In this document: piece by piece, positions 36,956-58,781 of the stretch
Layout of the letters: every line of letters starts with the position of its first letter
Position numbering within the stretch: the first letter of the stretch is position 1
Notes under the pieces: generated by a model
What the model was told of the DNA's origin: nothing
Database searches by the model: none
What the model saw: only the letters and a program-made list of their open reading frames with translations
Position numbers and translations under genes: made by a program
NCBI GenBank assembly: GCA_009784935.1
Contig: WQXI01000011.1
Span: 1 to 62,158 of the forward strand
DNA length: 62,158 nucleotides
DNA from: Treponema sp.
GTDB lineage: Bacteria; Spirochaetota; Spirochaetia; Treponematales; Breznakiellaceae
Reading direction: 5' to 3'

Positions 36956-37028
36956 TGAGAGAAGGGACTGCTTTTCATTCAATTATTTGGTTTCTTTACG
37001 AGAGAAGGGACTTGCCTTCCAATCACTC
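36956..37028 (-). repeat. Two truncated copies of the tRNA-Leu 3' end behind the tRNA
   Basis: Reading on the minus strand away from tRNA-Leu, the 18 bases of its 3' end that start at C56 recur at 37014-36997 and, with a few changes, at 36970-36956. Each copy is preceded by a box: GATTGGAAGG for the first and GAATGAAAAG for the second. The units are 32 and about 41 bases long. Confidence 0.75.
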
Positions 37029-37110
37029 TACGAGAGAAGGGACTTGAACCCTTAAACCTTACGGCACTAGATCCTAAGTCTAGCGTGTCTGCCAATTCCA
37101 CCACTCTCGC
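37029..37110 (-). tRNA. tRNA-Leu (anticodon TAG)
   Basis: On the minus strand, GCGAGAG pairs with CTCTCGT (one G-T pair). It has a long variable arm (TGCCGTAAGGT...), anticodon loop CTTAGGA giving TAG (codon CTA), and T-arm GGTTCAAGTCC. 82 bases, no encoded CCA. Followed by truncated copies of its own 3' end. Confidence 0.95.
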
Positions 37111-37133
37111 TCTTTTAGCAGTTTTCTACAGTA

Positions 37134-37191
37134 AAGGTACCAATAGTTAGCCTGCCTGTCAATTGACCTATTTGCCGTTTTTTAGTAGTAT
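37134..37191. promoter_or_regulatory. Back-to-back promoters of tRNA-Leu and tRNA-Lys
   Basis: TGTCAATTGACC at 37157-37168 holds two -35 boxes abutting head to head. To the right, TTGACC is 17 bases before TAGTAT (37186-37191), serving tRNA-Lys. To the left, TTGACA is 17 bases before TACCTT (37139-37134), serving tRNA-Leu. Confidence 0.6.
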
Positions 37192-37213
37192 GACTATGGG
37201 AGAATGTAAATAC

Positions 37214-37286
37214 GGACCGCTAGCTCAGCTGGTAGAGCAGCAGACTCTTAATCTGCGGGTCGATGGTTCGATCCCATCGCGGTTCA
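37214..37286 (+). tRNA. tRNA-Lys (anticodon CTT)
   Basis: GGACCGC pairs with GCGGTTC, the anticodon loop CTCTTAA gives CTT (codon AAG), and the T-arm is ATGGTTCGATCCCAT. 73 bases with discriminator A and no encoded CCA. Its 3' end is repeated 157 bases downstream. Confidence 0.97.
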
Positions 37287-37446
37287 AAGTGATTCAATCA
37301 CTTAAAAAAATTCCGCGGTGGGAGCGAAGGGTTTAACCCGCCGATAGGAAAAGGCGCCACGGAGGGCGCCGGCAGGGTTAAACCCCGGCCTGTAATGAGC
37401 AAACAGGATGTTTGCGATTGAAAGGCGATCCCATCGCGGTTCAAAG
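37287..37446 (+). repeat. tRNA-Lys-linked hairpin element ending in a copy of the tRNA 3' end
   Basis: Bases 37426-37446 repeat 37269-37289 exactly (21 bases, from C56 of tRNA-Lys past its end). Between lie an inverted T-arm copy (CCGCGGTGGGA, 37313-37323, complementary to the copy), an 11-bp stem GGGTTTAACCC/GGGTTAAACCC (37329-37339, 37375-37385), GGCGCC-ACGGAG-GGCGCC (37353-37370), GCAAAC-AGGAT-GTTTGC (37399-37415) and the box GATTGAAAGG just before the copy. No reading frame is supported. The element runs up to the tig ribosome-binding site. Confidence 0.8.
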
Positions 37447-37466
37447 GGGCGGTTCAGGAGGGAAAT

Positions 37467-38816
37467 GTGGCAATTAACAAGGTAATAAAAAAGTTAGATA
37501 AATCGAATGTGCAGTTAAGCATTACTGTTCCCAAAGAGGATGTTAAGGCTCAGTACAATGACATGCTCAATGAATACTCCAAAAACATGCAATTACCCGG
37601 CTTTAGAAAGGGAAAAGTCCCCCGCGAAGTACTGGAACGCAAGTACGCTGACGCGCTAAAAGGTGAAGCTATGGGACGTATCATGGAATCTACCCTGCAG
37701 GACATCTTTAAAGAAGACAACCTGCCAAGAAGCGAAAAACCCCTCCCCTACGCTCACCCGGAACTTCAGGGAGAGCCGGATTTCGATATGGAAAAAGACC
37801 TTCAATTTTCTGTAATTTATGATGTTCTTCCAGAAGTTAAAATCAGCCAATGGAAGGGAATAAAAGTCGAACACCCATACGCCGAAGTCGATAAAAAAGA
37901 CATCGAAAAAGAACTAGACGCCATCCGCGAAAGAAACGCCATTGTAATGGATCGCGATGACAGCGAAGCTGCCAAAAAAGGCGATGTTGTTACCATAGAT
38001 TATCAAATTTATAACGAAGACGGCGAAACTCCGTCAAGTATTTCCCGAAAGGATTTTGCCTTTACCCTTGGATCGGCAGGAAATGTATATCAGTTTGATG
38101 ACGAAATAACCGGCATGAAAAAAGGCAGTGTAAAAGATTTTAAGAAAAAGTTCGCCGATGATTTTTTTGAACCTACCCTTGCTGGCCAGACCAGAAAAGT
38201 GCAGATAACGCTCACAACGCTTAAAGAAAAAAAACTTCCTGATTTAGACGACGACTTGGCGCAGGATGTCGATGAAAAATTTAAGACTCTAGACGATCTT
38301 AAAAACAATATCAAAGAAAGACTCGAAAAACAGCTTGAGTTTCGCCTGAGAGAAAAAAAACTAAACGAACTTCTAAAAAAAATCATGGATAATACGCCTG
38401 TCATCCTTCCTGACTCGATGATTAACGCAGAAGTCGAAAGCCGCTGGCGGAGAATGGCGCGTTATTACAACACAAGCGTAGAATCGATTCAGCAGATGAT
38501 GGCTATCGGTGATAAAGCTGCAGAATGGCGCGAAGGAGCGGTTAAAGCGCTTCATTCTAGGCTTATTATTGAGACTCTAATGGAAGAGCAAAAAATTGAA
38601 GCTTCTGATGATGATGTAGAAAAAGAATTTGAATCTATCGCCAGCGCAAACGGCGCGCAAATCGAAGATGTTAAAAAACATTATAACGAAGAAGCAATCT
38701 TCTATCTAAAAGAAGATATAAGAGAAAAAAAGATTACAGATATCATGCTGACAGAAAATAATTTTAAACCCGGTAAAAAGGAGAATTATCTGGATTTCAT
38801 GTCAGATAATGGTTAA
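37467..38816 (+). CDS. tig: Trigger factor
   Basis: Ribosome-associated chaperone and prolyl isomerase. The 449-residue product has the N-terminal ribosome-binding domain with PGFRKGKVPREVLE (the signature GFRxGxxP), the FKBP-type middle domain (KKGDVVTIDYQIY, DDEITGMKKGSVKDF) and a helical C-terminal domain. The start is GTG at 37467, five bases after AGGAGG; an ATG two bases earlier is out of frame. It leads the tig-clpP-clpX-lon cluster, a known arrangement in spirochaetes. Confidence 0.96.
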   Translation: MAINKVIKKLDKSNVQLSITVPKEDVKAQYNDMLNEYSKNMQLPGFRKGKVPREVLERKYADALKGEAMGRIMESTLQDIFKEDNLPRSEKPLPYAHPELQGEPDFDMEKDLQFSVIYDVLPEVKISQWKGIKVEHPYAEVDKKDIEKELDAIRERNAIVMDRDDSEAAKKGDVVTIDYQIYNEDGETPSSISRKDFAFTLGSAGNVYQFDDEITGMKKGSVKDFKKKFADDFFEPTLAGQTRKVQITLTTLKEKKLPDLDDDLAQDVDEKFKTLDDLKNNIKERLEKQLEFRLREKKLNELLKKIMDNTPVILPDSMINAEVESRWRRMARYYNTSVESIQQMMAIGDKAAEWREGAVKALHSRLIIETLMEEQKIEASDDDVEKEFESIASANGAQIEDVKKHYNEEAIFYLKEDIREKKITDIMLTENNFKPGKKENYLDFMSDNG

Positions 38817-38825
38817 ATTAATATT

Positions 38826-39440
38826 ATGAGTGTAAAAATGAGCAATCTTGTACCTATTGTAGTCGAACAAACAGGAATGGGAGAACGTTCCTATGATATT
38901 TATTCCCGTCTTTTAAAAGATCGCATTGTGTTTTTAGACGGAGAAATCAATGATGTTTCTGCTGATTTGGTAGTTGCCCAGCTTTTATTTTTAGACGGAC
39001 AAGATACCGAAAAAGATATTAATCTTTATGTTAACTCACCGGGCGGCTCAGTAACAGCGGGATTGGCAATTTATGATACGATTCAGCACGTTAAATCCGA
39101 AGTAACGACAATTTGCCTTGGACAGGCGGCAAGCATGGCGGCTCTAATTTTAACAGCAGGCGCAGCCGGAAAACGTATGATTCTGCCATCTGCGAGAGTT
39201 TTGATTCATCAGCCATGGGGCGGCGCTCAGGGACAGGCGCGCGACATTGGTATTCAATCTAAAGAAATTGTCCGCCTTAAAAAACTAATAATCGAATATT
39301 TCGCAAAACATTCCGGTAAAACTGTCGAACAGATTTCTTCCGATATGGAAAGAGATTTTTACATGTCCGCGCAGGATGCGGTTGAGTACGGTATTGCCGA
39401 CTCCATACTAACGAGGGAAAAAAATGGCGCGTCTTCGTAA
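38826..39440 (+). CDS. clpP: ATP-dependent Clp protease, proteolytic subunit
   Basis: A 204-residue serine protease with the catalytic triad Ser103 (QAASMAA), His128 (LIHQPWGG) and Asp177 (ERDFYM). An N-terminal stretch of about ten residues precedes the mature start (VVEQTG). The last 17 bases overlap clpX, so the two are coupled. Confidence 0.97.
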
Positions 39441-40695
39441 CGGACCCGAAGTATTCGAAAGAGTCTGCTCTTTCTGCGGAAAAAGCGCCGACATGGCACG
39501 CCGTCTTATCGCAGGGCCGAATGATGTCTTTATCTGCGATGAATGTATAGAAGTCTGCCGTAAAATTCTTACAGAAGAAGAACATGAACTTACTACGCAG
39601 TTTACAGGCGATATTCCGACTCCAAAAGAAATAAAAGCTTACCTTGATCTTTTTGTCATCGGACAGGATAACGCAAAAAAAGCGCTTTCTGTCGCTGTTT
39701 ATAATCATTACAAACGAATCGCAAATCCTTCTGCCGAAAAAGAAAAAGATATAGAAGAAGTAGAAATTGAAAAATCGAATGTTTTATTAATCGGACCTAC
39801 AGGCACAGGAAAAACTCTGCTTGCAAAAATACTCGCAAAAAAATTAAAAGTTCCTTTTGCAATAGTTGATGCTACTACTCTTACAGAAGCGGGTTATGTC
39901 GGCGAAGATGTAGAAAATATTCTTTTAAAACTGATACAGAGCGCGGGCGGCAATATTTCCGCGGCAGAAAGAGGCATTGTATACATCGACGAAATCGATA
40001 AAATCGCGCGTAAAGGCGAAAATATTTCTATTACACGCGATGTCTCGGGCGAAGGCGTTCAGCAGGCATTGCTAAAAATAATCGAAGGCTCTATTGCTTC
40101 TGTTCCTCCGCAGGGCGGCAGAAAACATCCCAATCAGGAATTGATCCGCATTGACACAACAAATATTTTATTTATCTGCGGAGGCGCTTTTGTAGGACTC
40201 GATAAATTAATCTCCCGCCGTGTAGTTAAGCAGCCTCTTGGTTTTGGCGCAAAAACAGGAACCAGCGAAAAATCACTTAAAGAACTTTACGATTCACTGC
40301 ACCCTGATGATTTAATTCAATTTGGTATGATACCTGAGTTTATCGGGCGTCTACCAATAACAGTAGGGCTGGAAGAATTAAAGCGCGAAGATTTAAAAAG
40401 AATAATAACCGAACCAAAAAATGCGATTGTCCGCCAGTATCAGGCGTCTTTGGCTTATGACAGCGTAAAACTTGAGTTTACAGAAAAAGCAATTGACGCA
40501 ATAGCTGACATGGCAATAAAGCAAAAAACCGGAGCCCGCGGGCTTCGCGCGATTGTAGAAAGAATGATGACGGATATTATGTTTGATATTCCTTCGATAG
40601 CCGGCGATAAGCATGTAATAATTACTCATGATACTGTAGAAAAAGCCGAACCGCCGGAAATTATTTATCTTGAGCAAAAACAAAAGAGCGCATAG
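39424..40695 (+). CDS. clpX: ATP-dependent Clp protease, ATP-binding subunit ClpX
   Basis: A 423-residue AAA+ unfoldase. The N-terminal zinc domain has Cys15, Cys18, Cys38 and Cys41. Walker A is GPTGTGKT (about 125-132), Walker B is [11 protein letters not shown], and the pore loop GYVGEDVE and RKHPNQE are present. GAGG stands seven bases before the ATG. It feeds ClpP. Confidence 0.97.
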
Positions 40696-43318
40696 TGTGG
40701 GAAAAATTACAAAAGAAAAAAAGGGATTTATAAATACCCTCTTTTCTAAAAAAAAGAAATCAAAAAGCTCTCTTTTTTATGATTACAATAATACAGAAGA
40801 ATTAATAACAGAAGATTTCCCTCTGCTTCCGCTTCGCGATCTTGTGCTTTTTCCGCAGACTGTTGTTCCGATTTTTATTACATATAAACCGGGTATCGCA
40901 GCCCTAGAAGAAGCGCTAAAGCACGATAACCGTCTTTTTGCCGCTTGTTTAAAAAAAAATGAGTTCCGTCTTTCTTCTGATGAACCTTATAAAATCGGCA
41001 CTGTCGTAAGAATAATTTCTCATTTAAAGCTTCCCGATAATACTTTCCGCGTTGTGTTTCAGTGCGAGTATTCGGGTACTATAATTTCGTCTAATTACCA
41101 TAATAATTATTCGCTTGTAAAGGTCGAACCGTTAAAAACAACAGGGCTAAGCGATCCTATCAGCCCAGAAGACATCGGTTTAATGCGCAGCGTTCAAAAA
41201 TCTTTTACGCAATATTCGGAATACTCGGGCAAGATATCTCCCGATACGCTTGCTGCTGTAGAAAAATCAGAAGATCCTCAGCGTATCGCAAACCTTGTAT
41301 GTAATGCTATAAATATTAAATCCGAAAAAAAAATAGAGCTGCTCTCCTTTTCTGATACAAAAGAAAGATTTCTTGCGATTCTGGAAATTTTAGAAAAGGA
41401 AAATGAAATCTTTGGTATTCAAAAAAATATTTCCGGCAAGGTACGCAGAAAAATGGACAAGCGTCACCGTGAATATATTTTGAATGAACAGCTCAGGGAA
41501 ATTAACAAAGAACTCGGCAAAGATAAAATAGAAGATGAGTTTGCAATACTGGAAAAAAGAATCGCAGAAAAAAACCCTCCAAAAGAAGTAACAGAAAAAT
41601 GCGAAAAAGAAATAAAACGCCTCAGAAAACTCCAGCCGCTTTCCCCGGAAGCAGGCGTACTAAGAGGTTATCTTGAATGGATAGCGGACCTTCCTTGGAG
41701 TAATTTTTCTCCGGAACCTGACAGCAAAGATACCTGCCTGCTTACAGAAGCAGAAAAAATTCTTGACTCAGACCATTTTGGTATGAAAAAAGCTAAAGAC
41801 AGGATAATTGAGTTTATTGCAGTACAGCAGCTTTTAAGAAATGAAATTGTTAATAAGGAAAAAAATAATGATAAAACTGCAGATATTACAGAAACTAAAG
41901 AGACAATAATCGAGAATCTCGCTGTTAAAAATGAAAATCCGGAATCTTCTATTAACAATAATAAACAACTTCCTAATTCTATCAAAGGTCCTATTCTTTG
42001 CTTTGTGGGTCCGCCGGGAACAGGAAAAACTAGTCTTGGAAAATCTGTCGCCCGCGCGCTTGGGCGAAACTTTGTCCGTATCTCTCTTGGCGGTGTTCGT
42101 GACGAAGCGGAAATCCGCGGACATAGAAAAACATACGTAGGCGCGCTTCCCGGAAAAATAATACAGTCCATGAAAAAAGCCGGAACAGTTAACCCTGTCT
42201 TTTTATTAGACGAAATCGATAAACTTTCTCATGACTTTAGAGGTGACCCCGCTTCTGCGCTTTTAGAAGTTCTAGACCCTGAGCAGAACTCTACGTTTGT
42301 AGATCATTATTTAGAAGTTCAATACGATCTTTCTAAGGTAATGTTTTTAACAACAGCAAACTCTCTTCATTCGATTCCGTATCCCCTGCTAGACCGCATG
42401 GAAATTATCGAGGTTCCCGGTTACGGCGAAAATGAAAAATTAAGTATTGCAAAACAATTTTTGGTTCCTAAAGAACTTAGAGATAACGGCTTGGCTTCTG
42501 CAAAAATCACATTTAAAGATGAAACTTTAAAAGATATTATCCGTTATTGGACAATGGAATCAGGTGTTAGAAACCTTGAACGCGAAACAGCCCGTTGTAT
42601 CAGGCGAATCGCGCGTGATGCTGTGAACAAAGGCTACGGCAAAAATAAGGCAATCAGCGAGTTTTCTAAAACTGTAAATCCTGACAATCTTGAAAAACTT
42701 CTTGGCAAGAAAAAATATAAACGCGATGTTGTCTACAGAGAAGCGCGTATCGGCGTAACATACGGGCTTGCATGGACAGAATACGGCGGAAACATTTTAC
42801 CTGTAGAAACAATCCGCTATGACGGAAGCGGCGAACTTTTAATAACAGGAAATCTCGGCGATGTTATGAAAGAAAGCGCGCGTATTGCACTTTCGTACCT
42901 TCGCAGTACCAGCAGCAATTACAGCTTTGATGTAAAAGATTTGGCAAAATCTGATTTTCATATACATGTGCCCGAAGGCGCAATTCCAAAAGACGGTCCT
43001 TCCGCCGGCATTACTCTCGCTTCTTCTTTACTGTCCACATTATGCAAAGTTCCGCCGCTTCCGAGCATTGCAATGACAGGAGAGCTTACACTGACAGGAC
43101 GCATTCTTCCGATCGGCGGTTTAAAAGAAAAACTTTTGGCAGCTGTAAGAAACGGCATGGAAAAAGTGCTGCTTCCAAAGGATAACGAAGATGACTGGAA
43201 CGAACTTGACAAGGACATACGCGGCGCAATTACTGTTGAATTTGCAGAAACCGCGGCTGATATATTTAATATTTTATTCCCAAAAGATATTTTTAACAAA
43301 AAAAAGAGGTCAAAATGA
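40670..43318 (+). CDS. lon: ATP-dependent Lon protease with an extra linker
   Basis: An AAA+ serine protease. Up to 882 residues: a basic N-terminal extension, Lon substrate domain ([10 protein letters not shown]), helical region, AAA+ with Walker [10 protein letters not shown] (about 446), and a C-terminal protease with the Ser-Lys dyad (KDGPSAGI and [10 protein letters not shown]). Between RNEIVNKEK and the Walker A strand about 42 polar Asn/Glu/Thr-rich residues are inserted compared with ordinary Lon. TTG at 40670 overlaps clpX; GTG at 40697 with GAG seven bases upstream is the other possible start. The stop overlaps the ald start by four bases. Confidence 0.95.
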
Positions 43319-44430
43319 AAATTGGAACATTAAAAGAAATTAAAAACCATGAATACCGCGTTGGTCTTACTCCAAATGCGGCAAGCGCGTATATCAGCGC
43401 CGGTCATTCTGTGATTGTAGAAAAAGGAGCCGGCGAAGGCTGCGGTTATTCGGATGACCAATACGCGGCAATCGGCGCAAAGATACTGCCAAAAGCCGAA
43501 GATGTATGGAAAGACGCCGAAATGATAATAAAAGTAAAAGAACCGCTGGAAAGCGAATACAGTCTTTTGCAAGAGAATCAAATTTTATATACTTACCTTC
43601 ATTTAGCGCCGGATAGACCTCAGGTAGAAGCGCTTATAAAATCAAAGTGTATCGCTATTGCTTATGAGACTATCAGAGATCGCAAAGGACAGCTTCCTTG
43701 CCTTAAACCAATGAGTCAAATTGCAGGCCGTCTTGCGATACAGGTCGGCGCAAAATATCTGGAAAAACAAATGGGCGGCAGGGGTGTTTTACTTTCCGGC
43801 GTACCGGGAGTTCCCCATGCAGAAATTGTTGTACTTGGCGCGGGCGCTGTAGGTTCCAGCGCTGTAAAAATCGCAGTTGGAATGGGAGCTCATGTTACAG
43901 TAGTAGATATTGATAATGACAGACTCGAATATTTAGAAGATATTTACGGCAGTCAGATTGCTACTCTTTATTCGACGCAGGAAAACATCGATGAAATTCT
44001 TCCTAAGGCGGATTTAGTTATAGGAGCCGTTTTAATCCCGGGTTCATCCGCGCCAAAACTTATCAAAAACAAACATTTACCTACAATGAAAAAAGGATCT
44101 GTAATTGTAGATGTCGCAATTGATCAGGGCGGATGCAGCGAAGCAAGCCGTCAGACATATCACGACAATCCTGTTTTTATACAAGACGGCGTTGTCAATT
44201 ATTGTGTCGGCAATATGCCGGGCGCTGTTTCGTACACGTCAACAAACGCACTTGGAAACACAACTTTACGCTACGGTCTTTCTATAGCAAAGAACGGCGC
44301 AGAAGCCGCGTTAAAAAACGATCCGGGTCTTTTAGAAGGATTAAATGTTTACAAGGGCAAAGTAACTTACGAAGGCGTAGCTGTTGCGCATAATTTAGCT
44401 TATACTCCGGCAATTGACGCGATTAAGTAA
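43315..44430 (+). CDS. ald: Alanine dehydrogenase
   Basis: NAD-dependent interconversion of alanine and pyruvate with ammonia. The 371-residue product starts [20 protein letters not shown], as in the family, and has the catalytic HLAPD His, the Rossmann GAGAVGSSA, and VAIDQGGC. AGAGG lies inside the lon end and ATGA overlaps its stop. Its link to a protease operon fits use of amino acids released by proteolysis, an inference. Confidence 0.97.
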   Translation: MKIGTLKEIKNHEYRVGLTPNAASAYISAGHSVIVEKGAGEGCGYSDDQYAAIGAKILPKAEDVWKDAEMIIKVKEPLESEYSLLQENQILYTYLHLAPDRPQVEALIKSKCIAIAYETIRDRKGQLPCLKPMSQIAGRLAIQVGAKYLEKQMGGRGVLLSGVPGVPHAEIVVLGAGAVGSSAVKIAVGMGAHVTVVDIDNDRLEYLEDIYGSQIATLYSTQENIDEILPKADLVIGAVLIPGSSAPKLIKNKHLPTMKKGSVIVDVAIDQGGCSEASRQTYHDNPVFIQDGVVNYCVGNMPGAVSYTSTNALGNTTLRYGLSIAKNGAEAALKNDPGLLEGLNVYKGKVTYEGVAVAHNLAYTPAIDAIK

Positions 44431-44441
44431 TATTTAAATTA

Positions 44442-45971
44442 CTATTTAACCGCCGTTATTTGCGCTTCTGCATGAGCCATATATCTTGTGTACGTAAAAA
44501 CTGTAATTCTCCGCTCGCCGTTTGGAACAGCGGAAACGTTCATTGATATATCCGCCAAATTATTATTTTCGCTCTTTACAAATACTCCGTCAATGTATAT
44601 ATCTGCTTTAACTGTATTTGGCGAAATATTTAATTTTATATTTAGATTGCTGTCATTAAATTGCGCGGATATAATTGATAACGAAGGTTTTGCAATCTCC
44701 GCAGTTGTAAGCCTTCTTGTACCTGTAGGTTCGATTCCCCTGTAATCCTGTCTTACATCATCTACTTTTTTGTTGCCAAGCACTGTAATGTTTTGGGGAT
44801 GTCCGTTTCCTGTTTTGCCTGCATCGGTTAAATACTTTAAGTATCCGATAGAAGCATAATCCCAATTCATTAAATTTGCGCCGACAATATCAAGCGCTAA
44901 TGTGTCTCTAGAAGCGAGAATAACCCGCGCGTTTTTCTGCGCTTGAGATAACCGTGTAATAGTTACTCCTCTTGGGTTAAACGTTCTGCCTGCAATAGGA
45001 CCTATATCTGTTCCCTGCAATCCGTCCATTATTGTAAAATGCGAAGGAAGAGCCGTATAATAATCTGCAATAAAGTTGTGAATACGCGGATCCGGCGAAT
45101 GCGGGATTCTATTATTACGCCCGATTCGATCCATGACATTGCCATGCATATTTGCGTTACCGTATACATTCGGCGGTGTTGCGCCGATTGCCATGTTTTT
45201 AACGCCGCCTGTAGTACCTGTGCCCCAATGATTTTTTAAAACAGGAATATTTATAATTGCGTTTGCTTCCTGCATTCTTCTGTTTACCCAATAAGCTCCG
45301 TCGCCGTTATAAACTTTTACAGCTAATCCTGTCGGCCAGCTGTCTTTAAAGAGCCATTCATCAAGCTGTATTCTTTTAAGATTAGGATGAGGCGCAAAAG
45401 GATTTGTTGTCACATAACTTCCGCTGTCATTCTCCAGCGAAACAAACTCGTCTACTTCCGGAATGTTAGCAGAGGTATATCCGAGTTTTTGATAATGTTT
45501 TGCAGTAGTCTCTCTCGATGAAGCTTCCATTACCCAAATCTTGCCGGTAGGGCCAATTATTTCTCTTACAAGCTGAGCAGCCGCTCTTACAACACGCCAA
45601 TCGGTGCAGACACCGTTAACAAACGGCGGTAAATCGGGACCAGTATACCCGGGTCTTGTTACATCATGGTAGAGCACCAAATTAGGTTTAAGTACGACCG
45701 TATCTCCGGTTTTTATAATTCCGTTTAATCCGCCCGCAATCTCTACAGCTTCGGAAACCATCTGTTTTATATCATTAAATGTAAGCTCCGAAGCAGACGC
45801 TTTTGGAGACTGCACAAGCGATACGATAGAGTTAGAATCAAAAGACAATGAAGCTGCCGCATTTGAATGATAAATAATACTGGAAGAATTATTTAGATTT
45901 GCTGCAGTTATAAAACCAATAGAGGTTATAATCATTACCAGCGGTATTATTTTTTTCATTATTTTATTCAT
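44442..45971 (-). CDS. Secreted DUF362-family protein
   Basis: A 509-residue exported protein. Signal peptide at about residues 1-24. DUF362 features: GDTVVLKPNLV, INIPVLKNHWGTGTTGGVKNMAIGA (in parts: NIPVLKNHWGT, VKNMAIG), IMDGLQGTDIGP and ALDIVGANLMNWD. DUF362 proteins are often Fe-S-related and cytoplasmic; this one has no Cys cluster and is exported. The last 90 residues form a separate beta-domain (ADIYIDGVFVKSE). GGAG six bases upstream supports the start at 45971. Expected as the second gene after the CBM9-like gene? No: it is transcribed after it on the minus strand, 86 bases downstream, so both may share a message. Function unknown. Confidence 0.8.
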   Translation of the reverse strand: MNKIMKKIIPLVMIITSIGFITAANLNNSSSIIYHSNAAASLSFDSNSIVSLVQSPKASASELTFNDIKQMVSEAVEIAGGLNGIIKTGDTVVLKPNLVLYHDVTRPGYTGPDLPPFVNGVCTDWRVVRAAAQLVREIIGPTGKIWVMEASSRETTAKHYQKLGYTSANIPEVDEFVSLENDSGSYVTTNPFAPHPNLKRIQLDEWLFKDSWPTGLAVKVYNGDGAYWVNRRMQEANAIINIPVLKNHWGTGTTGGVKNMAIGATPPNVYGNANMHGNVMDRIGRNNRIPHSPDPRIHNFIADYYTALPSHFTIMDGLQGTDIGPIAGRTFNPRGVTITRLSQAQKNARVILASRDTLALDIVGANLMNWDYASIGYLKYLTDAGKTGNGHPQNITVLGNKKVDDVRQDYRGIEPTGTRRLTTAEIAKPSLSIISAQFNDSNLNIKLNISPNTVKADIYIDGVFVKSENNNLADISMNVSAVPNGERRITVFTYTRYMAHAEAQITAVK

Positions 45972-47072: not shown

Positions 47073-47093
47073 CTTATAAAGTTAAAATGTTAG

Positions 47094-51356: not shown

Positions 51357-51436
51357 AGATTTCCCTCTCAATAATTAAACTTCTCTCATTTTATCACACA
51401 AATATGAAGCAAGTAATCAAAGATCTCGTTATATAA

Positions 51437-53527
51437 CTACATCTCTGCAAGTTTGCTTTCTGTCATCTTGGCAAGATTATTCATATCGCTTAAAAGCTTG
51501 CTCATTTTAGAGAGCATATCGGCATAACCGTCTTTTACTTCTATGCTTCCGTCTTTTATATTCTTAAGCGAAGAAGTTATACCGTTACTTTTGTGCGACA
51601 TTTCGCCAAGGACAGAGATCATTTCTGTCATTGTCTGCGCAAAATCGTTTACTTCCGAAGACATAGAATTGATCATTACATTAGTATCATTCGACCGTTT
51701 TGCGGTTGTGTTAATGCCGCTGATAATATTTGATAAAGTCTGCGAAATATTTTGAGAGTTTGCTCTTGTACTTTCGGACAATTTGCGTATTTCATCTGCG
51801 ACTACAGCAAAACCTCTGCCTGCTTCTCCGGCATGCGCAGCTTCGATTGCCGCATTCATCGCCAAAAGATTAGTGTTAGCTGCAATGGTAGAAATAATTT
51901 TGATCGCCTGAGCTATACCGTCAACAGACTGCGAAATGCTCTGCACCGACTGAATCGTTTCCTGCATGGACTGCTGGCCTTTTGCAGTGTCTTCTATAAG
52001 AGACTGAATCCTTTCCTGTTTCTGCTTTGAACGATCCGATGTGCTTTTTAGAGAGCCGGACATTTCTTCGGTGTTTTCCGAAGATTCTTTGACTGACTTT
52101 AAGTATTCGTCCATACGGCTGTCCATCGATTTAACAACTTCGTTAATACCGCCAATTATATCAAGAGCTACATCGACATGTTTATTGAGCTGATCATTTA
52201 ATTCTTCTATTACCTTTTTTTCGTTCCCAAGCAGATTAAAGTTGTAATGGAGACAGTTATCCGGTTTATTAAGATTGTTATAGATAGCTTCTGCCATCGC
52301 TTTACAGGTTCCGTAACCGCAGGCTGTGCAATTCTTAATATCCTTGGTCTGATCCTTTTTCATTTTTTGGTATACTTCGCTTAACTGCATTTGATTGGGA
52401 TACACAAAAGTATTGTTGCCTGACATGTCTATATAACCGCGATCATAGATACCTTTTTTCCAGTACTTTTTTATAACAGCATGGTATTTTTTATATGCTC
52501 GTTTGTCTTTTTCAGGTTTAAGACTTTCTTCGAGTTTGGCGCTGCGCTCATCGATTGGACTTCCTAATACGAGTTCTGAAAGTTTAACGTTTCCTGTTCC
52601 CGGTCCGCCGTTACAGCCTTTCTCGCAATTTAAACAGTCAACAAGAAGCGGAAGCTTTACATTAGAATTTATATGTTCAGAAATCCCGGTAAGATAGGGA
52701 TAAATAGCATGAAGCCCTTCTGATTTATGAGTGCGACGTCTGATACCCGGAATAAAACGTTCAACAGTATCCAATAACCCCCCTGGAGAAGAAAAACGAA
52801 CAGCGCGTTCAGCATTCTCACCTAAATACTCTACCTTTGGAAACGAAGCTAAATCTATTTTTGCGCTTTCAAAGTATTTTTTTAACGCTAACATAGTAAC
52901 GTTGTAATCACCAAGTTTTGTTTCGTCAAATTCCCGCTTCTTTGCAGCGCAGGGAGAAATAACTGCTATTTTATAATTTCTGTATTTTGGATAATATTCC
53001 TTGATCATTTTAATTGAATGAAGCATTGGACTGTGCGCAGGCGCAAGGAATGGAATCAATTTAGGATGGTATATTTCGATAAAGCTGACAATAGCAGGAC
53101 AAGGCTGAGCTATAACCAAACGGGGATTTTTTTCATTAATATATTCGAGGTATGAAACAACAGTAAGTTCTGCGCCGAAACTTACGTCAAAGATAGCTTC
53201 TATACCCAGCGACTTTAGCCAGCCGTTAAAATTTAGATACTGATTCGGAAAAACCGAAGCGATTGCCGGAGCGACAACGGCGGCTATTTTTTCACCCTTT
53301 TTTACGTCAGCCAGAAATTGTGATGTATCGTCAATAACATATCTAGCTTCATGCGTACAACAAGCGATACAGTTTCCGCAGCCGATACACATGTCGTGGT
53401 TGATGTTTAATTTTTCACCTGAGCCGTCGTTACAAAATTTAACGGGACAGGCGTCAATGCATGCATAGCAGTTAATGCATTTTTCAAGGTCAATTTGAAT
53501 TACAGGAGCAAGTGAAACTTTAGCCAT
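51437..53527 (-). CDS. Sensory [FeFe]-hydrogenase-like protein fused to a chemoreceptor signalling domain
   Basis: A 696-residue soluble protein. Residues 17-57 bind two [4Fe-4S] clusters (C17-C20-C23-C27, C47-C50-C53-C57). The H-cluster domain follows with QPCP (Cys143), SPCAAKK (Cys193) and NCEKGC (Cys301, Cys305). All four Cys for the H-cluster cubane are kept, but the proton-relay Cys of TSCCP is replaced by Pro, as in non-catalytic sensory (HsfB/group D-like) forms. A further Fe-S domain has Cys400, 403, 408 and 425. Residues about 450-696 are an MCP signalling domain with [17 protein letters not shown] and no membrane segment or HAMP. A cytoplasmic hydrogen or redox sensor for chemotaxis is inferred. 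GGAG precedes the start. Confidence 0.92.
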
Positions 53528-53636
53528 AAAAACTCCATCTAAATTTAATATTCTTATATTATGACATTTTTAATAATTTTTGTAAATATGATATTTATAA
53601 TAATTTTTATTTTTTTCTTTATAAAATCTTGAATTG

Positions 53637-53645
53637 TGATATAAT
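53637..53645 (+). promoter_or_regulatory. Extended -10 promoter of the second chemoreceptor gene
   Basis: TGATATAAT at 53637-53645 is a perfect extended -10. The -35 region is AT-only. It stands 46 bases before the ATG at 53691, in a very AT-rich gap shared with the divergent hydrogenase-MCP gene. Confidence 0.5.
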
Positions 53646-53690
53646 GTTATAAATTTAAATAAATATTCTATAAAATATAGGAGTTAATTA

Positions 53691-55532
53691 ATGGAAAATA
53701 CACCGAAAAAAAAGAAAAAAAGCCTGCTTTTTAAGTTATCTGTCATTTATTCCGGGTTATTAATTATTGCAATTTTAATTCTTTCTGTAATAAGCGTTCA
53801 ATCTGTAGAAAATTCAAGCCACGAAGCCGCAATCATTATGGGCAGAAACAAGTTAAACGGCGACATGACATCTGTTGAATACATTCTGGAAAAAGAATAC
53901 GGAAAATTAATTTATACTTCTAACGACCTTACAGACGAAGACGGTAATTCTTTAAAGCACGATTATATTATTATAGACCGGATATCAAAAAATCTTGGCG
54001 TACATGCTACGATATTTGTAAGGGAAAACAGAGACTTTCGCCGTTTAACAACAAGTATTATCGATGGCTCCGGAAACAGAGCGGTTGATACCCTGCTTGG
54101 CACTAACAGCGCTGCTTATAATCCTATTATGTCAGGAAACGATTTTATCGGAATTGCTCAAATACTCGGTCAAGACTACTATGCCATATACAGGCCGATA
54201 ATCGCGCCTAATTCCAGAGATATTGTAGGCATTTTATTCATTGGAATAGAAATGACATCTATCGACGAATATATTATTAATTTTAGAACCAGGAAAATAG
54301 TAACAATTACGATTCAGGCTATTATAATTCTTTTAATTTCTATTTTTGTTAATCTAGTTTTCTGCCGAATGATTCTTCTTAAACCTATCCGCGCTGTAAT
54401 AGATATGCTTATTCATCTGGAAGAAGGAGATCTTACACAACAAGTTGTAATATCGAGTTATGATGAAATCGGAGAAATGAAACAGCATATTAATACTACT
54501 GTAGGAAAAATTAAAGCATTGGTATTAAGTATTAAGGGCGAAGCTGATCTTTTATCCGGCATAGGAAGCGATCTTTCTTCTAATATGTCAGAAACAGCCG
54601 CTTCTATTAATCAAATTACAGCCAACATCCAAAGCATTAAAAGCAGGGTTATTAATCAGAGCGCAAGCGTTACAGAAACAAACGCAACTATGGAGCAGGT
54701 TACCGGAAACATCAGCAAACTAAACGGTCTTATAGAAGATCAAAGTTTATATGTATCTCAGGCATCCTCTGCCATCGAAGAAATGATAGCAAACATTGCG
54801 TCTGTTACAAATACACTTAGCAATAATACTGTTAATGTAAATAAACTAAAAGAAGCGTCAGAAGTAGGACGAAACGGTATTCAGGAAGTAGCGTCTGACA
54901 TACAGGAAATTTCGCGGGAATCCGAAGGACTTTTGGAAATCAACTCTGTAATGGAAAATATCGCAAGTCAGACAAATCTTCTTTCTATGAATGCAGCAAT
55001 CGAAGCCGCTCATGCAGGAGAAGCCGGAAAAGGATTTGCAGTAGTAGCGGATGAAATCCGTAAACTTGCCGAAAACTCCAGCGGACAGTCTAAAACGATT
55101 GGATCTGTTTTAAAAAAGATGAAAGAATCAGTTGACAAGATAAGCCGTTCAACAGAAAACGTGCTTCAAAAATTTGAAGCTATCGACTTAAGCGTAAAAA
55201 CTGTAACACTGCAGGAACAAAACATCCTTAACGCAATGGAAGAACAGGGAACGGGCTCTAAACAAATACTTGACGGTATCAGCAGTGTCAACGAAGTTAC
55301 TCGTCAGGTAAAAAGCGGCTCGCACGAAATGCAGGAAGGCTCAAGGGAAGTAATAAACGAAAGCAAAAACCTCGAAAAAGTTACACAGGAGATTACCCAG
55401 AGCATGAACGAAATGGCAAGCGGCGCGGAGCAAGTAAACGTCGCCGTACACCAAGTAAACGAAATCTGCATTAAAAACAGAGATGGTATCAACTTACTAA
55501 TGAAAGAAGTCTCCAACTTTAAAGTTGAATAG
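53691..55532 (+). CDS. Methyl-accepting chemotaxis protein, single-Cache type
   Basis: A 613-residue membrane chemoreceptor. A basic KKKKK start, membrane helix about 12-35, a periplasmic single-Cache region about 40-200 ([24 protein letters not shown]), second helix about 205-228, HAMP about 230-285, and a signalling domain with [21 protein letters not shown] is seven bases before the ATG. It is divergent from the hydrogenase-MCP and followed by a hybrid kinase. The periplasmic domain resembles Cache_3-Cache_2 types; the ligand is unknown. Confidence 0.93.
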
Positions 55533-55577
55533 GTTAAATGACAGAGGCTTCTAAATCATTACTCAGATTTTTAAATG

Positions 55578-55608
55578 GCTGTCAGGGAATTTCCTTGACA
55601 GCTTTTTT
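55578..55608 (+). terminator. Rho-independent terminator after the chemoreceptor gene
   Basis: GCTGTCAGGGAA pairs with TTCCTTGACAGC and is followed by T6. It separates the chemoreceptor from the hybrid kinase gene. Confidence 0.85.
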
Positions 55609-55665
55609 GTATTTTATTTAATTTTTATCTTGCTTTTTTAGTTGTAGGGTTTTATAATTATTACA

Positions 55666-57618
55666 GTGAAAAAGAGAAAAAGCGCAAACAATAAGCTCCC
55701 TCTTGTCTATGTATTGTTTTTTTTATCTTCGATAGCTATGTTAATTATCGTTGTGATATTTTCTATTTTTATAAAAGATATCGAAAAAGAAAGAATCAAC
55801 AGCATCCAAAACCACTTGCGGGTTGCGGCTCAGCGCGCTTCGGTTTTTCTTACGGTGGATGAGCTGGAATTGTTCCATACGGCAGAAGATATGGAAAGAC
55901 CCGAATGGGAAGAAATACGAACAAGGCTTAAGAAGTTTGCAGAAGAAACCGCAGTTCTTTATGTGTACTATTGGCGCTATGACGGCGGAGACTACATTCA
56001 GTACATTATTGATAACGACGATGACGAAGAATACATGGTAACGCCCGATCTCTTTTTTGCGCTTGAAGATGACCCTTTTACTGCTGATGCTGTTCTCAAA
56101 ATTGAAGCAGGAGAAAGCTGGGTAACAGAACTGGGTGTCTATACATCATCTTGGGACGGTCTTCTTTCCGCTGTAGTGCCGGTGTTCAACAATGACGGCA
56201 CGGTTTACTGCACAGCCGGAGTTGACATAAGCGATGAAATATTTATTACCATGCGCAAAAATATAAAGATGATGGAATCTGTGTTAATTTTTTCATTGTT
56301 TATTTCGATTTTTTCAGGATTCTTTGCTATACGCTCATATAGGAAAAAAGCCATTCAGAGCGCCAAAGATAGTTTATCTAAGAGCCATTTTCTTTCGACA
56401 ATGAGCCATGAAATGCGCACTCCCCTAAACGCCATAATTGGTATGACGGTAATTGGAAAAAAAGCGGAAGACTTGGATAAAAAAGACATTGCATTTAACA
56501 AGATTGAAGATGCGTCATCTCATATGCTCGGTATAATTAATGATGTGCTTGATATGGCAAAAATTGAGGCAAACAAATTGGAACTCTCACCGATAGAATA
56601 TAGTTTTGAGAAAATGCTGAATAAAGTAATTACAGTCGCTAGTTTTCGCGCAGAAGAAAAAAAGCAGATTCTGACCGTTAATATTGACAGCTCTGTACCG
56701 AAATTTATTATTGGAGACGATCAGCATTTAGCGCAAGTGATAACGAACCTATTATCCAATGCGGTAAAATTTACGCCGGAAAACGGCGAAATAAAATTAT
56801 TGGTTTCTTTAGCTGGTGAATCCGGCGCATCTTGCAACGAAGTTTCCAGCAATGAATGTGAACTGCGTATCGAGGCAGCCGATAATGGAATTGGCATAGC
56901 TCCCGAACATCAGAAAAAGCTATTTGAAATGTTTGAACAAGCAGAAGACGGGACGACCCGTAAGTTTGGAGGCACAGGGCTGGGGCTTGCAATTTCGAAG
57001 CGTATTGTTGAGTTGATGGGCGGCAGGATTTGGGTCGAATCGGAGTTGGGCAAAGGCGCGCGTTTTATTTTTACTATTAAAGTTTTACGCAGTGAAAAAA
57101 ACAACGATTACATAGCTCCCATCAAAACAGATAGTATTAAGGAAGAAAATTCTGGGGGTATGAATTATAGATTTCCCGGTAAAAGGATGTTAATTGCCGA
57201 GGACATAGAAATTAATAGAGAGGTACTTGTATCATTACTGGAAAATACCGGCTTGCTCATTGACATCGCTGAAAATGGCCAAGAAGCATTGAACAAGGTA
57301 ATAGCGGATACTAACAAATATGATATTGTATTTATGGATGTTCAGATGCCTATTATGGATGGGCTTGAAGCAACCCGGCAAATACGCGCTCTTGAAAAAC
57401 AGCTTATTGAAAAAAAATCCACGAGTTTCGCCAAAGGCGAAACTCGAAGGTATCCGCGACAGCGGATACCAATTATAGCGATTACTGCTAATGCTTATAA
57501 GGAAGATATAAAAAATTGCCTTAAAGCCGGCATGGATGATCATCTTAGCAAGCCGCTTGATACTGAAAAAATATTCAAGATTCTGCGTAATTATCTTGTT
57601 GCCACCTCGGAGAATTGA
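55666..57618 (+). CDS. Hybrid sensor histidine kinase with C-terminal receiver
   Basis: A 650-residue membrane kinase. Membrane helix about 11-35; extracytoplasmic acidic region about 40-205 of Cache type (VLYVYYWRYDGGDY, SAVVPVFNNDGTVYCTAGVD); second helix about 208-228; HisKA with His248 (TMSHEMRTP); HATPase_c (NLLSNAVKFTP, DNGIGI, GGTGLGLAIS); receiver with phospho-acceptor Asp558 (FMDVQMPIMDG) and the TANA and SKPL motifs. A stretch of 17 residues (TSFAKGETRRYPRQR region) before IPIIAITANA is encoded by two adjacent palindromes. The last seven codons coincide with a copy of the tRNA-Phe 3' end. GTG start, weak ribosome-binding site. Confidence 0.93.
   Translation: MKKRKSANNKLPLVYVLFFLSSIAMLIIVVIFSIFIKDIEKERINSIQNHLRVAAQRASVFLTVDELELFHTAEDMERPEWEEIRTRLKKFAEETAVLYVYYWRYDGGDYIQYIIDNDDDEEYMVTPDLFFALEDDPFTADAVLKIEAGESWVTELGVYTSSWDGLLSAVVPVFNNDGTVYCTAGVDISDEIFITMRKNIKMMESVLIFSLFISIFSGFFAIRSYRKKAIQSAKDSLSKSHFLSTMSHEMRTPLNAIIGMTVIGKKAEDLDKKDIAFNKIEDASSHMLGIINDVLDMAKIEANKLELSPIEYSFEKMLNKVITVASFRAEEKKQILTVNIDSSVPKFIIGDDQHLAQVITNLLSNAVKFTPENGEIKLLVSLAGESGASCNEVSSNECELRIEAADNGIGIAPEHQKKLFEMFEQAEDGTTRKFGGTGLGLAISKRIVELMGGRIWVESELGKGARFIFTIKVLRSEKNNDYIAPIKTDSIKEENSGGMNYRFPGKRMLIAEDIEINREVLVSLLENTGLLIDIAENGQEALNKVIADTNKYDIVFMDVQMPIMDGLEATRQIRALEKQLIEKKSTSFAKGETRRYPRQRIPIIAITANAYKEDIKNCLKAGMDDHLSKPLDTEKIFKILRNYLVATSEN
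57422..57470. repeat. Double palindrome in frame inside the kinase receiver domain
   Basis: CGAGTTTCGCC (57422-57432), loop AAA, GGCGAAACTCG (57436-57446), then GGTATCCGC (57449-57457), loop GACA, GCGGATACC (57462-57470). Both stems are perfect. The insert falls in a loop where receiver domains usually have only a few residues. Confidence 0.8.
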
Positions 57619-57621
57619 ACT
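57599..57621. repeat. Distal 23-bp copy of the tRNA-Phe 3' end (att-like)
   Basis: This stretch is identical to 58255-58277, the 3' part of tRNA-Phe (acceptor 3' strand plus half of the T-arm). The two direct repeats flank a 656-bp period holding a TA pair and the tRNA terminator. No integrase is present. The same bases encode the last residues (ATSEN) of the hybrid kinase. Confidence 0.75.
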
Positions 57622-57688
57622 AAATTTCAAAGCTGTTATTTTTCTTGTATCTCTTGATAATATGTGGTCTGTAGTCTACACTATAAAA

Positions 57689-57955
57689 ATGGTTGTGTTT
57701 TTACATAAAGAAGCAGAAAAATATTTAAATCGATTAAATCCAAAAGAGCAAGATCGAATTAATGACGCAATAGAAAAATTAGGAAGAGAGCCGCCCGAAG
57801 GTGATACAGAACCATTAACAGGGCAAAATGGGTTCAGAACAAGGGTGGGAAATTACAGGCTTTTGTGGCGAATCGATGAAAAAAATATACTTGTAACGCA
57901 CATTGATCCAAGAGGTCAAGTCTACAAGAAAAAGAATAGGGGGAATAAAAGATGA
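57689..57955 (+). CDS. RelE/ParE-family toxin
   Basis: An 88-residue toxin of the RelE superfamily, typically a ribosome-dependent mRNA nuclease. It has FLHKEAEKYLNRL, then RVGNYRLLWRIDEKN and HIDPRGQVYKK, the usual C-terminal strand order. The ATG at 57689 fits the family N-terminus; the open frame extends back into the kinase gene. No ribosome-binding site is visible; TTGATA and TACACT at 17 bases spacing (57654-57659, 57677-57682) would place the transcript start at the ATG. The stop overlaps the antitoxin start (ATGA). Confidence 0.85.
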   Translation: MVVFLHKEAEKYLNRLNPKEQDRINDAIEKLGREPPEGDTEPLTGQNGFRTRVGNYRLLWRIDEKNILVTHIDPRGQVYKKKNRGNKR

Positions 57956-58164
57956 CGGCAGCAGTATTAAGAAAAGAATTACAAGGTTATATTGCAATAA
58001 TGCCAGAGCGCAGATTAAAAGTGTTAAAACCACTATTATCAGAAATGGCGGAGCCGCTTTATATAACTGAACCTGCAAGCAAAAAAGAAATCGCCATGAT
58101 TGAAGAAAGAGCAAAAGAATTTCCAAAAAATTTTGTCAAATTTAAAAAACGTGTAAAAGCATAA
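57952..58164 (+). CDS. Probable antitoxin of the RelE-like toxin
   Basis: A 70-residue protein overlapping the toxin gene by four bases, with AGGGGG upstream. It is helical and charged; the C-terminal part is basic (KFPKN-like EFPKNFVKFKKRVKA). No DNA-binding family is certain. Position after a RelE-type toxin and small size support an antitoxin role, in toxin-first order. Confidence 0.65.
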   Translation: MTAAVLRKELQGYIAIMPERRLKVLKPLLSEMAEPLYITEPASKKEIAMIEERAKEFPKNFVKFKKRVKA

Positions 58165-58206
58165 AAAACAAGAAATAGCGTACTTGTATTAAAAAAAGTG
58201 ATTCAA

Positions 58207-58243
58207 TAAAAAAGCTAAGTCCCTGTAAAACAAAGACTTAGCT
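58207..58243 (-). terminator. Rho-independent terminator of tRNA-Phe
   Basis: AGCTAAGTC (58213-58221) and GACTTAGCT (58235-58243) form a perfect 9-bp stem. On the minus strand it is followed by T6. It lies 13 bases past the tRNA. Confidence 0.85.
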
Positions 58244-58255
58244 CACTTGCTTCTT

Positions 58256-58328
58256 TGCCACCTCGGAGAATTGAACTCCAGACACGCAGATTTTCAGTCT
58301 GCTGCTCTACCAACTGAGCTAAGGTGGC
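58256..58328 (-). tRNA. tRNA-Phe (anticodon GAA)
   Basis: On the minus strand, GCCACCT pairs with AGGTGGC, the anticodon loop is CTGAAAA giving GAA (codons TTC/TTT), and the T-arm is GGAGTTCAATTCTCC. 73 bases, discriminator A, no encoded CCA. Its 3' end is repeated at 57599-57621. Confidence 0.97.
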
Positions 58329-58405
58329 TAAACAAACAGTGCCGCTTCAAAAAACAGCACTTGTTCCTGTAGAGAGCTGTAACAACCCCCCATAAGGACA
58401 TTCCC

Positions 58406-58434
58406 AGTATGCCAAAAAAGGCTAAAAATGTCAA
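58406..58434 (-). promoter_or_regulatory. Promoter of tRNA-Phe
   Basis: On the minus strand, TTGACA (58434-58429) and CATACT (58411-58406) are 17 bases apart, about 70 bases before the tRNA. A divergent TTGACT at 58462 with a weak -10 may serve tRNA-Ala. Confidence 0.55.
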
Positions 58435-58503
58435 TAGAAAAACTAGAATTTTATCCTTACATTGACTAAATACTTCAATTATGGCTAAATAGCCTTATAA
58501 AGC

Positions 58504-58576
58504 GGGGATATAGCTCAGTTGGTAGAGCGATTGGTTCGCAATCAATAGGCCAGGGGTTCGAATCCCCTTATCTCCA
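58504..58576 (+). tRNA. tRNA-Ala (anticodon CGC)
   Basis: GGGGATA pairs with TATCTCC, including the G3-T70 pair that marks tRNA-Ala. The anticodon loop TTCGCAA gives CGC (codon GCG), and the T-arm is AGGGGTTCGAATCCCCT. Discriminator A, no encoded CCA. Followed by a hairpin element that ends in a copy of its 3' end. Confidence 0.96.
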
Positions 58577-58781
58577 TAATTTGAGATTAGTGGTATAATT
58601 AATAATACCCATTAATTAACAAAAGGCGGTTAATCGGGGATTCGAACCGAAGTGCCGTGCCTCGAAAAGGCGAAAGCCTTTGAGAGGTTGAGGCGCACGG
58701 ATGCGCCGAAAGGCACGAAGGCGGGCTGGAGGGAGTTTGCAGGAAGCAAACGACTGGAAGCCGAATCCCCTTATCTCCATA
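58577..58781 (+). repeat. tRNA-Ala-linked hairpin element ending in a copy of the tRNA 3' end
   Basis: Bases 58762-58781 repeat 58559-58578 exactly (20 bases, from C56 of tRNA-Ala). Inside: an inverted T-arm copy GGGGATTCGAACC (58636-58648); GTGCC...GGCAC (58652-58656, 58712-58716) enclosing AAAGGC-GAAA-GCCTTT (58666-58681) and GGCGCA-CGGA-TGCGCC (58692-58707); GTTTGC-AGGAA-GCAAAC (58735-58751); and the box GACTGGAAGC before the copy. The outer GGGGATTCG pairs with CGAATCCCC of the copy. No reading frame is supported. Confidence 0.8.

What the first reader, a model, noticed from the sequence alone, without database searches (positions are those of the whole stretch)
36956..58781. A tRNA-linked element family: copies of tRNA 3' ends starting at C56, each preceded by a shared GAYTGRAAGSC box
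Behind three different tRNA genes the tRNA's own 3' end is repeated, and every copy starts at the same position, C56 of the T-loop: Lys (37426), Ala (58762) and Leu (37014 and, diverged, about 36970 on the minus strand). Just before each copy stands a similar ten-base box: GATTGAAAGG (Lys), GACTGGAAGC (Ala), GATTGGAAGG (Leu 1), GAATGAAAAG (Leu 2). The tRNAs differ in sequence, so the box is a property of the element, while the 3' end is matched to each host tRNA. The E. coli tyrT rtT repeats also end in a copy of the tRNA 3' end, but belong to one locus. Here the same signature occurs at three of five tRNA genes. A constant boundary inside the T-loop suggests one mechanism: site-specific recombination, or copying primed from a tRNA fragment.
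Basis: partly seen in the sequence, partly recalled or inferred. Interest (0 to 1): 0.85.

Follow-up and report, generated by a model that had tools for sequence, protein, structure and literature searches.

The report
tRNA-linked repeat elements in Treponema genomes
Behind many tRNA genes of this Treponema-like bacterium sits a small folded, apparently mobile DNA element that starts and ends in sequences matched to that very tRNA; it is a spirochaete version of the little-understood 'tRNA-linked repeats' of E. coli, and it offers clues to how such elements arise and what their RNA may do.

Summary
A model of part 3 finds it in 47 of 59 genomes of the host and its relatives and in 64 of 392 phylum genomes.
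Six elements show 37-80-nt duplications running from C56 to the element's left end. The Lys locus is empty in 11 of 11 comparable relatives. Related cores sit behind different tRNAs, each with re-matched ends. This indicates insertion at T55|C56; the enzyme is unknown, and searches of the draft host genome for RT, TnpB, Y1 and IS110 families found no convincing gene.
The kind is known: E. coli tRNA-linked repeats (22 copies, ten loci), so 'one locus' was wrong. New here, as far as I could search: wide spread in spirochaetes, the fold, the insertion footprints, and conserved CsrA-type GGA loops.

The parts
37214..37286 (+). host tRNA-Lys(ctt)
   Evidence: ARAGORN, Rfam
37313..37326 (+). left end of the Lys element: inverted match to tRNA-Lys C56-G69 (2 mismatches)
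37327..37425 (+). folded core of the Lys element (P2 and P3), ending in the box GATTGAAAGG at 37416-37425
   Evidence: fold z -5.8; model R1 57.5 bits, but this sequence is in the training set
37426..37443 (+). direct copy of tRNA-Lys C56-A73; the tig-like ORF starts at 37467
   Evidence: 18/18; ORF; empty site in relatives
58504..58576 (+). host tRNA-Ala(cgc)
58636..58648 (+). left end of the Ala element: inverted T-arm GGGGATTCGAACC
   Evidence: 10/10 match
58649..58761 (+). folded core of the Ala element with GGA-loop hairpins, ending in the box GACTGGAAGC at 58752-58761
   Evidence: fold z -5.8; model R1 60.6 bits, training sequence
58762..58779 (+). direct copy of tRNA-Ala C56-A73
   Evidence: 18/18
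37029..37110 (-). host tRNA-Leu(tag)
37015..37024 (-). box GATTGGAAGG without the rest of the element (truncated unit 1)
36997..37014 (-). direct copy of tRNA-Leu C56-A73 (unit 1)
   Evidence: 18/18
36971..36980 (-). diverged box GAATGAAAAG (truncated unit 2)
36953..36970 (-). diverged copy of tRNA-Leu C56-A73 (unit 2)
   Evidence: 4 mismatches of 18, ungapped

Best explanation
These are tRNA-linked repeats (the TLR kind) of spirochaetes: small non-coding elements that insert at the T-loop of tRNA and tmRNA genes. SHOWN: the insert is [inverted T-arm about 9-10 nt + AA][core with P2 and P3][box]; in six young-looking cases it lies between two copies of a 37-80-nt target stretch that starts at C56 and ends at a variable point downstream of the tRNA. 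INFERRED: one strand is cut or joined at T55|C56 and the other 37-80 nt downstream, as in target-primed or other staggered-cut insertion; the inverted T-arm is made from, or selected to match, the target; tandem arrays then grow by unequal exchange between the repeated tRNA ends. INFERRED FUNCTION: where the element is transcribed (readthrough of the tRNA terminator), its RNA folds into a three-way junction, its 3' end looks like the tRNA end, and its two GGA-loop hairpins bind CsrA, as reported in vitro for the E. coli rRNA-linked repeat rrB.
For: Copy and boundary statistics. Inverted copy: TT plus C56-C64 conserved (0.85-1.0 per position, among 131 elements chosen for at most 2 mismatches in nine), falling to background beyond position 65. 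Covarying P3. Spread: 47 of 59 genomes, host included; 64 of 392 phylum genomes, host included. Of 223 model hits, 183 had a same-strand tRNA within 900 nt, 27 were too near a sequence edge to tell, and of the other 13 only one (L180, 26.9 bits) showed no tRNA end, matched ends or further unit (read by eye). Target duplications L127 80 nt, L243 77, L071 70 with 2 differences, L231 54, L177 43, L158 37. Empty Lys(ctt)-tig site in 11 of 11 relatives with that order, among 29 tig loci read. 54 pairs of cores at least 82% identical behind tRNAs whose ends differ at 4 or more of 17 positions, from 127 cores; nearest relative at a different tRNA end for 118 of 143 cores. GGA in the last P2 loop 109 of 124 against 11 of 129 other P2 loops; CANGGANG in 91 of 143 cores against 7.4 in shuffles; CsrA homologues on two element-bearing contigs. 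E. coli lysV and tyrV repeats clearly have an inverted T-arm; argV has a weaker match, one mismatch in ten.
Against: No enzyme is identified, and no class that I tested is both confined to elements and present in every element-rich genome. Only 38 of 101 elements show a detectable spacer duplicate; of 15 displayed, six are clean single insertions, the others mostly run on as tandem units. No promoter was found by a crude look; terminator-like hairpins often lie between tRNA and element (44% of 85, against 12% of 77 control stretches), so transcription is uncertain. P3 loops are CGA rather than GGA in 22 of 143, which does not fit CsrA. The PrrB/RsmZ match is far below its gathering score (18.9 against 44 bits). 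For E. coli, the cited paper gives the 19 tRNA-linked members CsrA-prediction scores below 0.01. CsrA was not sought in the whole host genome. Copy conservation after insertion is only suggestive (18 mismatches against about 30 expected, P about 0.015).
Confidence: 0.6

Rival explanations
1. Site-specific recombination: circular units [C56-A73, spacer, inverted T-arm, core] are integrated into the T-loop by a tyrosine recombinase, so that the incoming unit restores the tRNA end and pushes the old end downstream, as with integrative elements or integron cassettes.
For: Phage_integrase-family genes occur in 59 of 59 genomes, and many carry an extra protein of about 400 aa; the four proteins tested match XerA and integron-integrase models. 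Arrays with poorly alignable spacers but near-identical cores (L129, core 0.98, spacer 0.59) fit whole-unit insertion.
Against: Of 31 regions fetched, nearly all chosen around such integrases, only one has an element nearby. Genome G054 has only two Phage_integrase matches yet an element. A recombinase does not explain an inverted T-arm matched to each tRNA, nor duplications that end at the element's left end.
Confidence: 0.2
2. RNA-guided targeting: the copy C56-A73 is an 18-nt guide at the 3' end of a scaffold RNA, with universal T54T55 as a PAM-like motif; the inverted TT + 9 nt at the left end is a partial target. Insertion follows cleavage at the tRNA end.
For: The geometry (scaffold, then guide; TT immediately 5' of the target) is that of TnpB or type V guides (recalled). 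The copy is conserved at all 18 positions (0.93-1.0 among 149); identity stops exactly at the tRNA end in 51 of 136; TT precedes the inverted copy in 128 of 131.
Against: The TnpB/Cas12f zinc-ribbon family scored above its cut-off in 0 of 59 genomes, with 4 weak matches below it, none in the host; the host has no Y1 match and only a sub-threshold IS110 match. No other effector class was searched.
Confidence: 0.12
3. No mobility: the elements are old RNA genes; arrays and spread come from tandem duplication, gene conversion of the conserved core and horizontal exchange of whole tRNA loci, while selection keeps the ends matched to the tRNA.
For: Some tandem pairs have conserved cores and diverged spacers; the own Ser(tga) and Ser(gct) loci have 96% identical cores, 73% identical spacers and co-changed ends.
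Against: Empty sites, clean duplications from C56 at otherwise single elements, and different cores (0.61) with 96% identical spacers in L235 point to insertion.
Confidence: 0.15

Closest known systems
E. coli tRNA-linked repeats (TLRs), including rtT/RttR behind tyrT, and the repeats behind lysV and argV
   Same: Located behind a stable RNA gene; 178-bp unit at tyrT; 18-19 nt at the 3' end identical to the host RNA end (PMC8144298); tandem copies; inverted T-arm at the left end, clear at tyrV and lysV, weaker at argV.
   Different: Different core sequence (R1 does not hit the tyrT locus L244; Rfam RtT does not hit the window); the copy starts at about position 58-59 and includes CCA; box GCGAGT-type; ten loci in K-12 (PMC8144298) against 17 tRNA/tmRNA genes with a full or contig-cut element here.
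rrA/rrB/rrF, E. coli rRNA-linked repeats that bind CsrA and Hfq in vitro
   Same: TLR kind; a GGA-loop hairpin (CAGGACG) and an inverted T-arm-like GGATTTGAAC are visible in rrB.
   Different: Sits behind 5S rRNA; CsrA binding is measured there (PMC8144298, passages), here only predicted.
PrrB/RsmZ-type Csr sponge RNAs
   Same: Hairpins with ANGGAN loops.
   Different: 18.9 bits against a gathering score of 44; not a member.
Integrative elements in tRNA genes (recalled)
   Same: T-loop to 3' end duplicated.
   Different: About 120 nt and no apparent coding capacity, target-matched inverted left end, long duplications.

Membership tests
tRNA-linked repeats (TLR kind, E. coli) | lies directly downstream of a tRNA or rRNA gene | tested here: met
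   183 of 223 hits with a same-strand tRNA within 900 nt upstream; 27 undecidable at edges; 12 of the other 13 show a tRNA end, matched ends or a further unit
tRNA-linked repeats (TLR kind, E. coli) | 18-19 nt at the 3' end identical to the host RNA gene's 3' end | tested here: met
   17/17 in 122 of 168 and at most 2 mismatches in 144 of 168; the other 24 have more mismatches or no readable copy
tRNA-linked repeats (TLR kind, E. coli) | one to several tandem units per locus | tested here: met
   29 neighbouring unit pairs compared; four complete Ala units in L108
tRNA-linked repeats (TLR kind, E. coli) | common ancestry of the core with E. coli repeats | tested here: inconclusive
   no R1 hit in the E. 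coli tyrT locus L244; a shared inverted T-arm only
Rfam RF00391 RtT | match above the gathering score | tested here: not met
   no match in the window; positive control in L244, 137.5 bits
Csr/Rsm sponge RNA | several hairpins with GGA in the loop | tested here: met
   predicted loops: P3 120 of 143, last P2 loop 122 of 142; 109 of 124 against 11 of 129 in other P2 loops
Csr/Rsm sponge RNA | binds CsrA in the cell | not testable with these tools
   needs CLIP or gel shift
TnpB/IS605 guide RNA | TnpB-type protein in the genome | tested here: not met
   PF07282: 0 of 59 above cut-off; 4 of 59 weak matches below it, none in the host
Retroelement mobilised by a resident reverse transcriptase | reverse transcriptase in element-rich genomes | tested here: not met
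   PF00078 absent in the host, G029, G031 and G019, present in G020 and 17 others of 59; the genomes are drafts
Tyrosine-recombinase cassette | recombinase gene linked to the elements | tested here: inconclusive
   recombinases in 59 of 59 but one linkage in 31 fetched regions

The most novel reading that the evidence does not exclude
A new class of site-specific, non-coding mobile element: an RNA (or single-stranded DNA) of about 120 nt that enters almost any tRNA or tmRNA gene at T55|C56 by staggered-cut insertion, writes a copy of the target's own T-arm into its left end at each jump, and carries CsrA-binding hairpins that the host has put to use, linking tRNA transcription to the Csr network. 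E. coli tRNA-linked repeats would be a second branch of the same class.
Probability: 0.3. Interest if true: 0.85.

Novelty: new variant of a known kind. Interest (0 to 1): 0.64.

Why it matters
tRNA-linked repeats have been known since 1978 in E. coli, and the 2021 paper says they had no known function before it tied three of the 22 to CsrA and Hfq; in what I read I saw no account of how they arise. A family with up to 21 model hits per genome, empty sites and fresh target duplications makes both origin and function testable. If the RNA binds CsrA, stable-RNA transcription would feed a global regulator in a phylum where, to my knowledge (recalled, not searched), Csr sponge RNAs are not described.

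Tried and rejected
TnpB/Cas12-type guide system: PF07282 above cut-off in 0 of 59. Reverse transcriptase: absent in four of the five element-richest genomes, present in the fifth, G020, and in 18 of 59 overall; one of those loci, L317, has a neighbouring reading frame that looks like a diversity-generating retroelement target (by eye, recalled). IS110: the host's only match is sub-threshold and lies in a 1,473-aa frame that starts like a CoA-dehydratase activator (recalled); similar weak hits in other genomes were not examined; 14 of 59 have matches above the cut-off. Y1 transposase: absent in host, G029, G019, present in 28 of 59. CRISPR-like repeat: considered from the ATTGAAAG-like box; not tested. 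Direct 4-5-nt target duplication at the element ends: none above shuffles. Promoter just upstream of the element: no -10-like peak in a crude count. Priming by mature tRNA: no CCA after 17 own-genome copies.

The first test of whether the inverted arm follows the tRNA or the copy (17 to 4) was withdrawn: after removing mis-registered cases too few informative positions remain. A terminator-switch reading was not pursued.

Rows dropped: of 231 model hits I used 223 (five repeats of the same places and three weak hits in L121 left out); from 183 with a tRNA, 168 remained after removing identical units and tRNAs without a recognisable T-loop.

Literature: searches. The term 'tRNA-linked repeat' occurs in two papers of that library. 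I read the introduction section and passages of PMC8144298, and passages of PMC4005645 and PMC8040213. That TLRs are not described in spirochaetes rests on these searches only; Rudd 1999 and Egan and Landy 1978 are cited second-hand.
Full report
WHAT WAS CLAIMED. All are there. The box by itself is near chance level.

WHAT IS THERE. I read the flanks of the 42 tRNA/tmRNA genes that ARAGORN found in fetched stretches of the own genome. Sixteen carry a full element; a 17th, behind Gln(ctg), is cut by a contig end. A unit reads: tRNA, spacer, an inverted match to the host's own T-arm, a GC-rich core, the box, and a second copy of C56-A73; behind Tyr and Ser(cga) the second copy has decayed after the first positions. 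Both window elements fold far better than shuffles (z -5.8 each). The last 42 nt of the core form a hairpin domain with a lower stem, a GNAA/UGNA internal loop, often a GA/GA step, and a CASGA-type apical loop. In 16 aligned sequences 83% of cells pair, against 59% in shuffles, and the covariation score is 0.596 against 0.164. Truncated units occur: box only (Leu(tag) twice, Ala(tgc) second unit), P3 only (Pro(cgg)), left end only (Lys(ttt)).

SPREAD. The model R1 gives 18 hits with E below 0.001 in the own genome, all behind tRNA or tmRNA genes; 16 of them trained it. It hits 47 of 59 genomes of the host and relatives at E 0.01, up to 21 per genome, and 64 of 392 genomes of the phylum at E 0.0001, 29 of 166 genera, with filters that lose weak matches. 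Viral contigs: 0 exact pattern matches. Of 223 hits examined, 183 have a same-strand tRNA within 900 nt, 27 lie too near an edge, and of the other 13 only one (26.9 bits) shows no tRNA end, matched ends or further unit (these 13 were read by eye).

MATCHED ENDS. From the 223 hits I kept 168 distinct ones with a tRNA and a recognisable T-loop. The direct copy is 17/17 in 122 and has at most 2 mismatches in 144; wrong tRNAs gave 0 exact in 2,773 trials. Among the 136 with at most one mismatch, identity starts exactly at C56 in 126 and stops right at the tRNA end in 51. The inverted copy consists of TT (128 of 131) and C56 to about C64; per-position identity is 0.85-1.0 up to C64, 0.56 at 65 and background after that. 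These 131 were chosen for at most 2 mismatches in nine, which inflates the first nine values. Among all 168, nine matched perfectly in 104, against 11 of 2,798 controls.

INSERTION. In eleven relatives in which tRNA-Lys(ctt) stands directly before tig, no element is present (29 relative loci read); a whole-locus comparison with the nearest relative leaves the element region unaligned. Six elements show a direct repeat that starts at C56 and runs through the spacer to the neighbourhood of the inverted arm (from 13 nt before it to 5 nt into it): 80, 77, 70 (two differences), 54, 43 and 37 nt. Overall 38 of 101 elements have a detectable spacer duplicate, with identities grading from 1.00 to 0.71; several of these are tandem units. 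The spacer is 58-68 nt long in 55 of 105. Cores move between hosts: the nearest core lies at a different tRNA end for 118 of 143, although same-end neighbours (25 of 143) exceed the 5.5% baseline. In L235 two different cores (0.61) follow nearly identical spacers (0.96). Twenty elements with decayed spacer duplicates have 18 copy mismatches in 340 positions against about 30 expected (P about 0.015); two elements account for 12 of the 18. So the copy may be kept by selection, but the evidence is moderate.

ENZYME. None of the classes tested fits: TnpB/Cas12f, reverse transcriptase, IS110, Y1. Tyrosine recombinases are universal; an extra XerA/integron-integrase-like protein of about 400 aa is frequent but, in 31 regions fetched, linked to an element only once.

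RNA. The last hairpin of P2 has GGA in its predicted loop in 109 of 124 cores with two or more P2 hairpins, against 11 of 129 loops of the other P2 hairpins; CANGGANG occurs in 91 of 143 against 7.4 expected. ANGGAX on a stem is the high-affinity Csr/Rsm site (PMC4005645, passages). The P3 loop has GGA in 120 of 143 and CGA in 22. CsrA homologues lie on two element-bearing contigs, L192 and L168. Terminator-like hairpins occur after the tRNA in 44% and after the second copy in 33% of 85 elements, against 12% of 77 control stretches, so it is open whether the elements are transcribed.

WHAT IS KNOWN. E. coli has 22 tRNA-linked repeats at ten loci; each ends in 18-19 bp identical to the end of the upstream tRNA or rRNA; three behind rRNA operons interact with CsrA and Hfq in vitro; the 19 behind tRNAs score below 0.01 for CsrA (PMC8144298). 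I read some E. coli loci myself: the tyrV and lysV repeats have a clear inverted T-arm and argV a weaker one, with copies from about position 58-59. rtT is found in 4,695 of 5,426 E. coli genomes, 1 to 14 places each. Hence: the same kind, a different and more numerous variant, and a general anatomy (inverted T-arm, core, direct tRNA end) that I did not find described in the papers I could search.

VERDICT. Real, not chance, and not new as a kind. The insertion footprints, the left-end inverted T-arm and the GGA loops are the new content. The mechanism of movement and the transcription of the elements remain inferred.

Noticed in passing
window 57600-57617 (-), behind tRNA-Phe 58256-58328: An exact copy of the Phe tRNA end lies 638 nt downstream with no box; the identity extends upstream through AGTT, so it looks like an ordinary integrase att repeat rather than this family.
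   Followed up: no
L109, L110 (genome G031): Several elements carry an extra block of about 100 nt (GCGCGCTACTCGGGC...GGGCGC) in the P2 hairpin loop, itself hairpin-like and repeated between loci: possibly a nested element.
   Followed up: no
own genome C4, downstream of tRNA-Gly(tcc) 56802-56875: An 8-nt piece of the tRNA's end (CAGCCGCT) recurs five times in a short repeat array behind the gene.
   Followed up: no
L334, L333, L354, L349 and about 17 further loci: A tyrosine recombinase of about 400 aa (four tested, between XerA and integron integrases), often with an extra N-terminal part, occurs in many of these genomes, frequently near a contig end; next to the own copy are small frames that look like toxin-antitoxin genes by eye.
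   Followed up: partly
genome G254, C1:2259425-2260206: Five tandem P3 domains at 185-nt spacing in a one-contig genome.
   Followed up: no
L379 250-310 (E. coli rrB): The rRNA-linked repeat rrB contains GGATTTGAAC, an inverted tRNA T-arm-like sequence, although its host is 5S rRNA; it may once have sat behind a tRNA.
   Followed up: no
E. coli collection: 731 of 5,426 complete E. coli genomes gave no rtT match at the search's threshold, which may offer natural empty sites.
   Followed up: no
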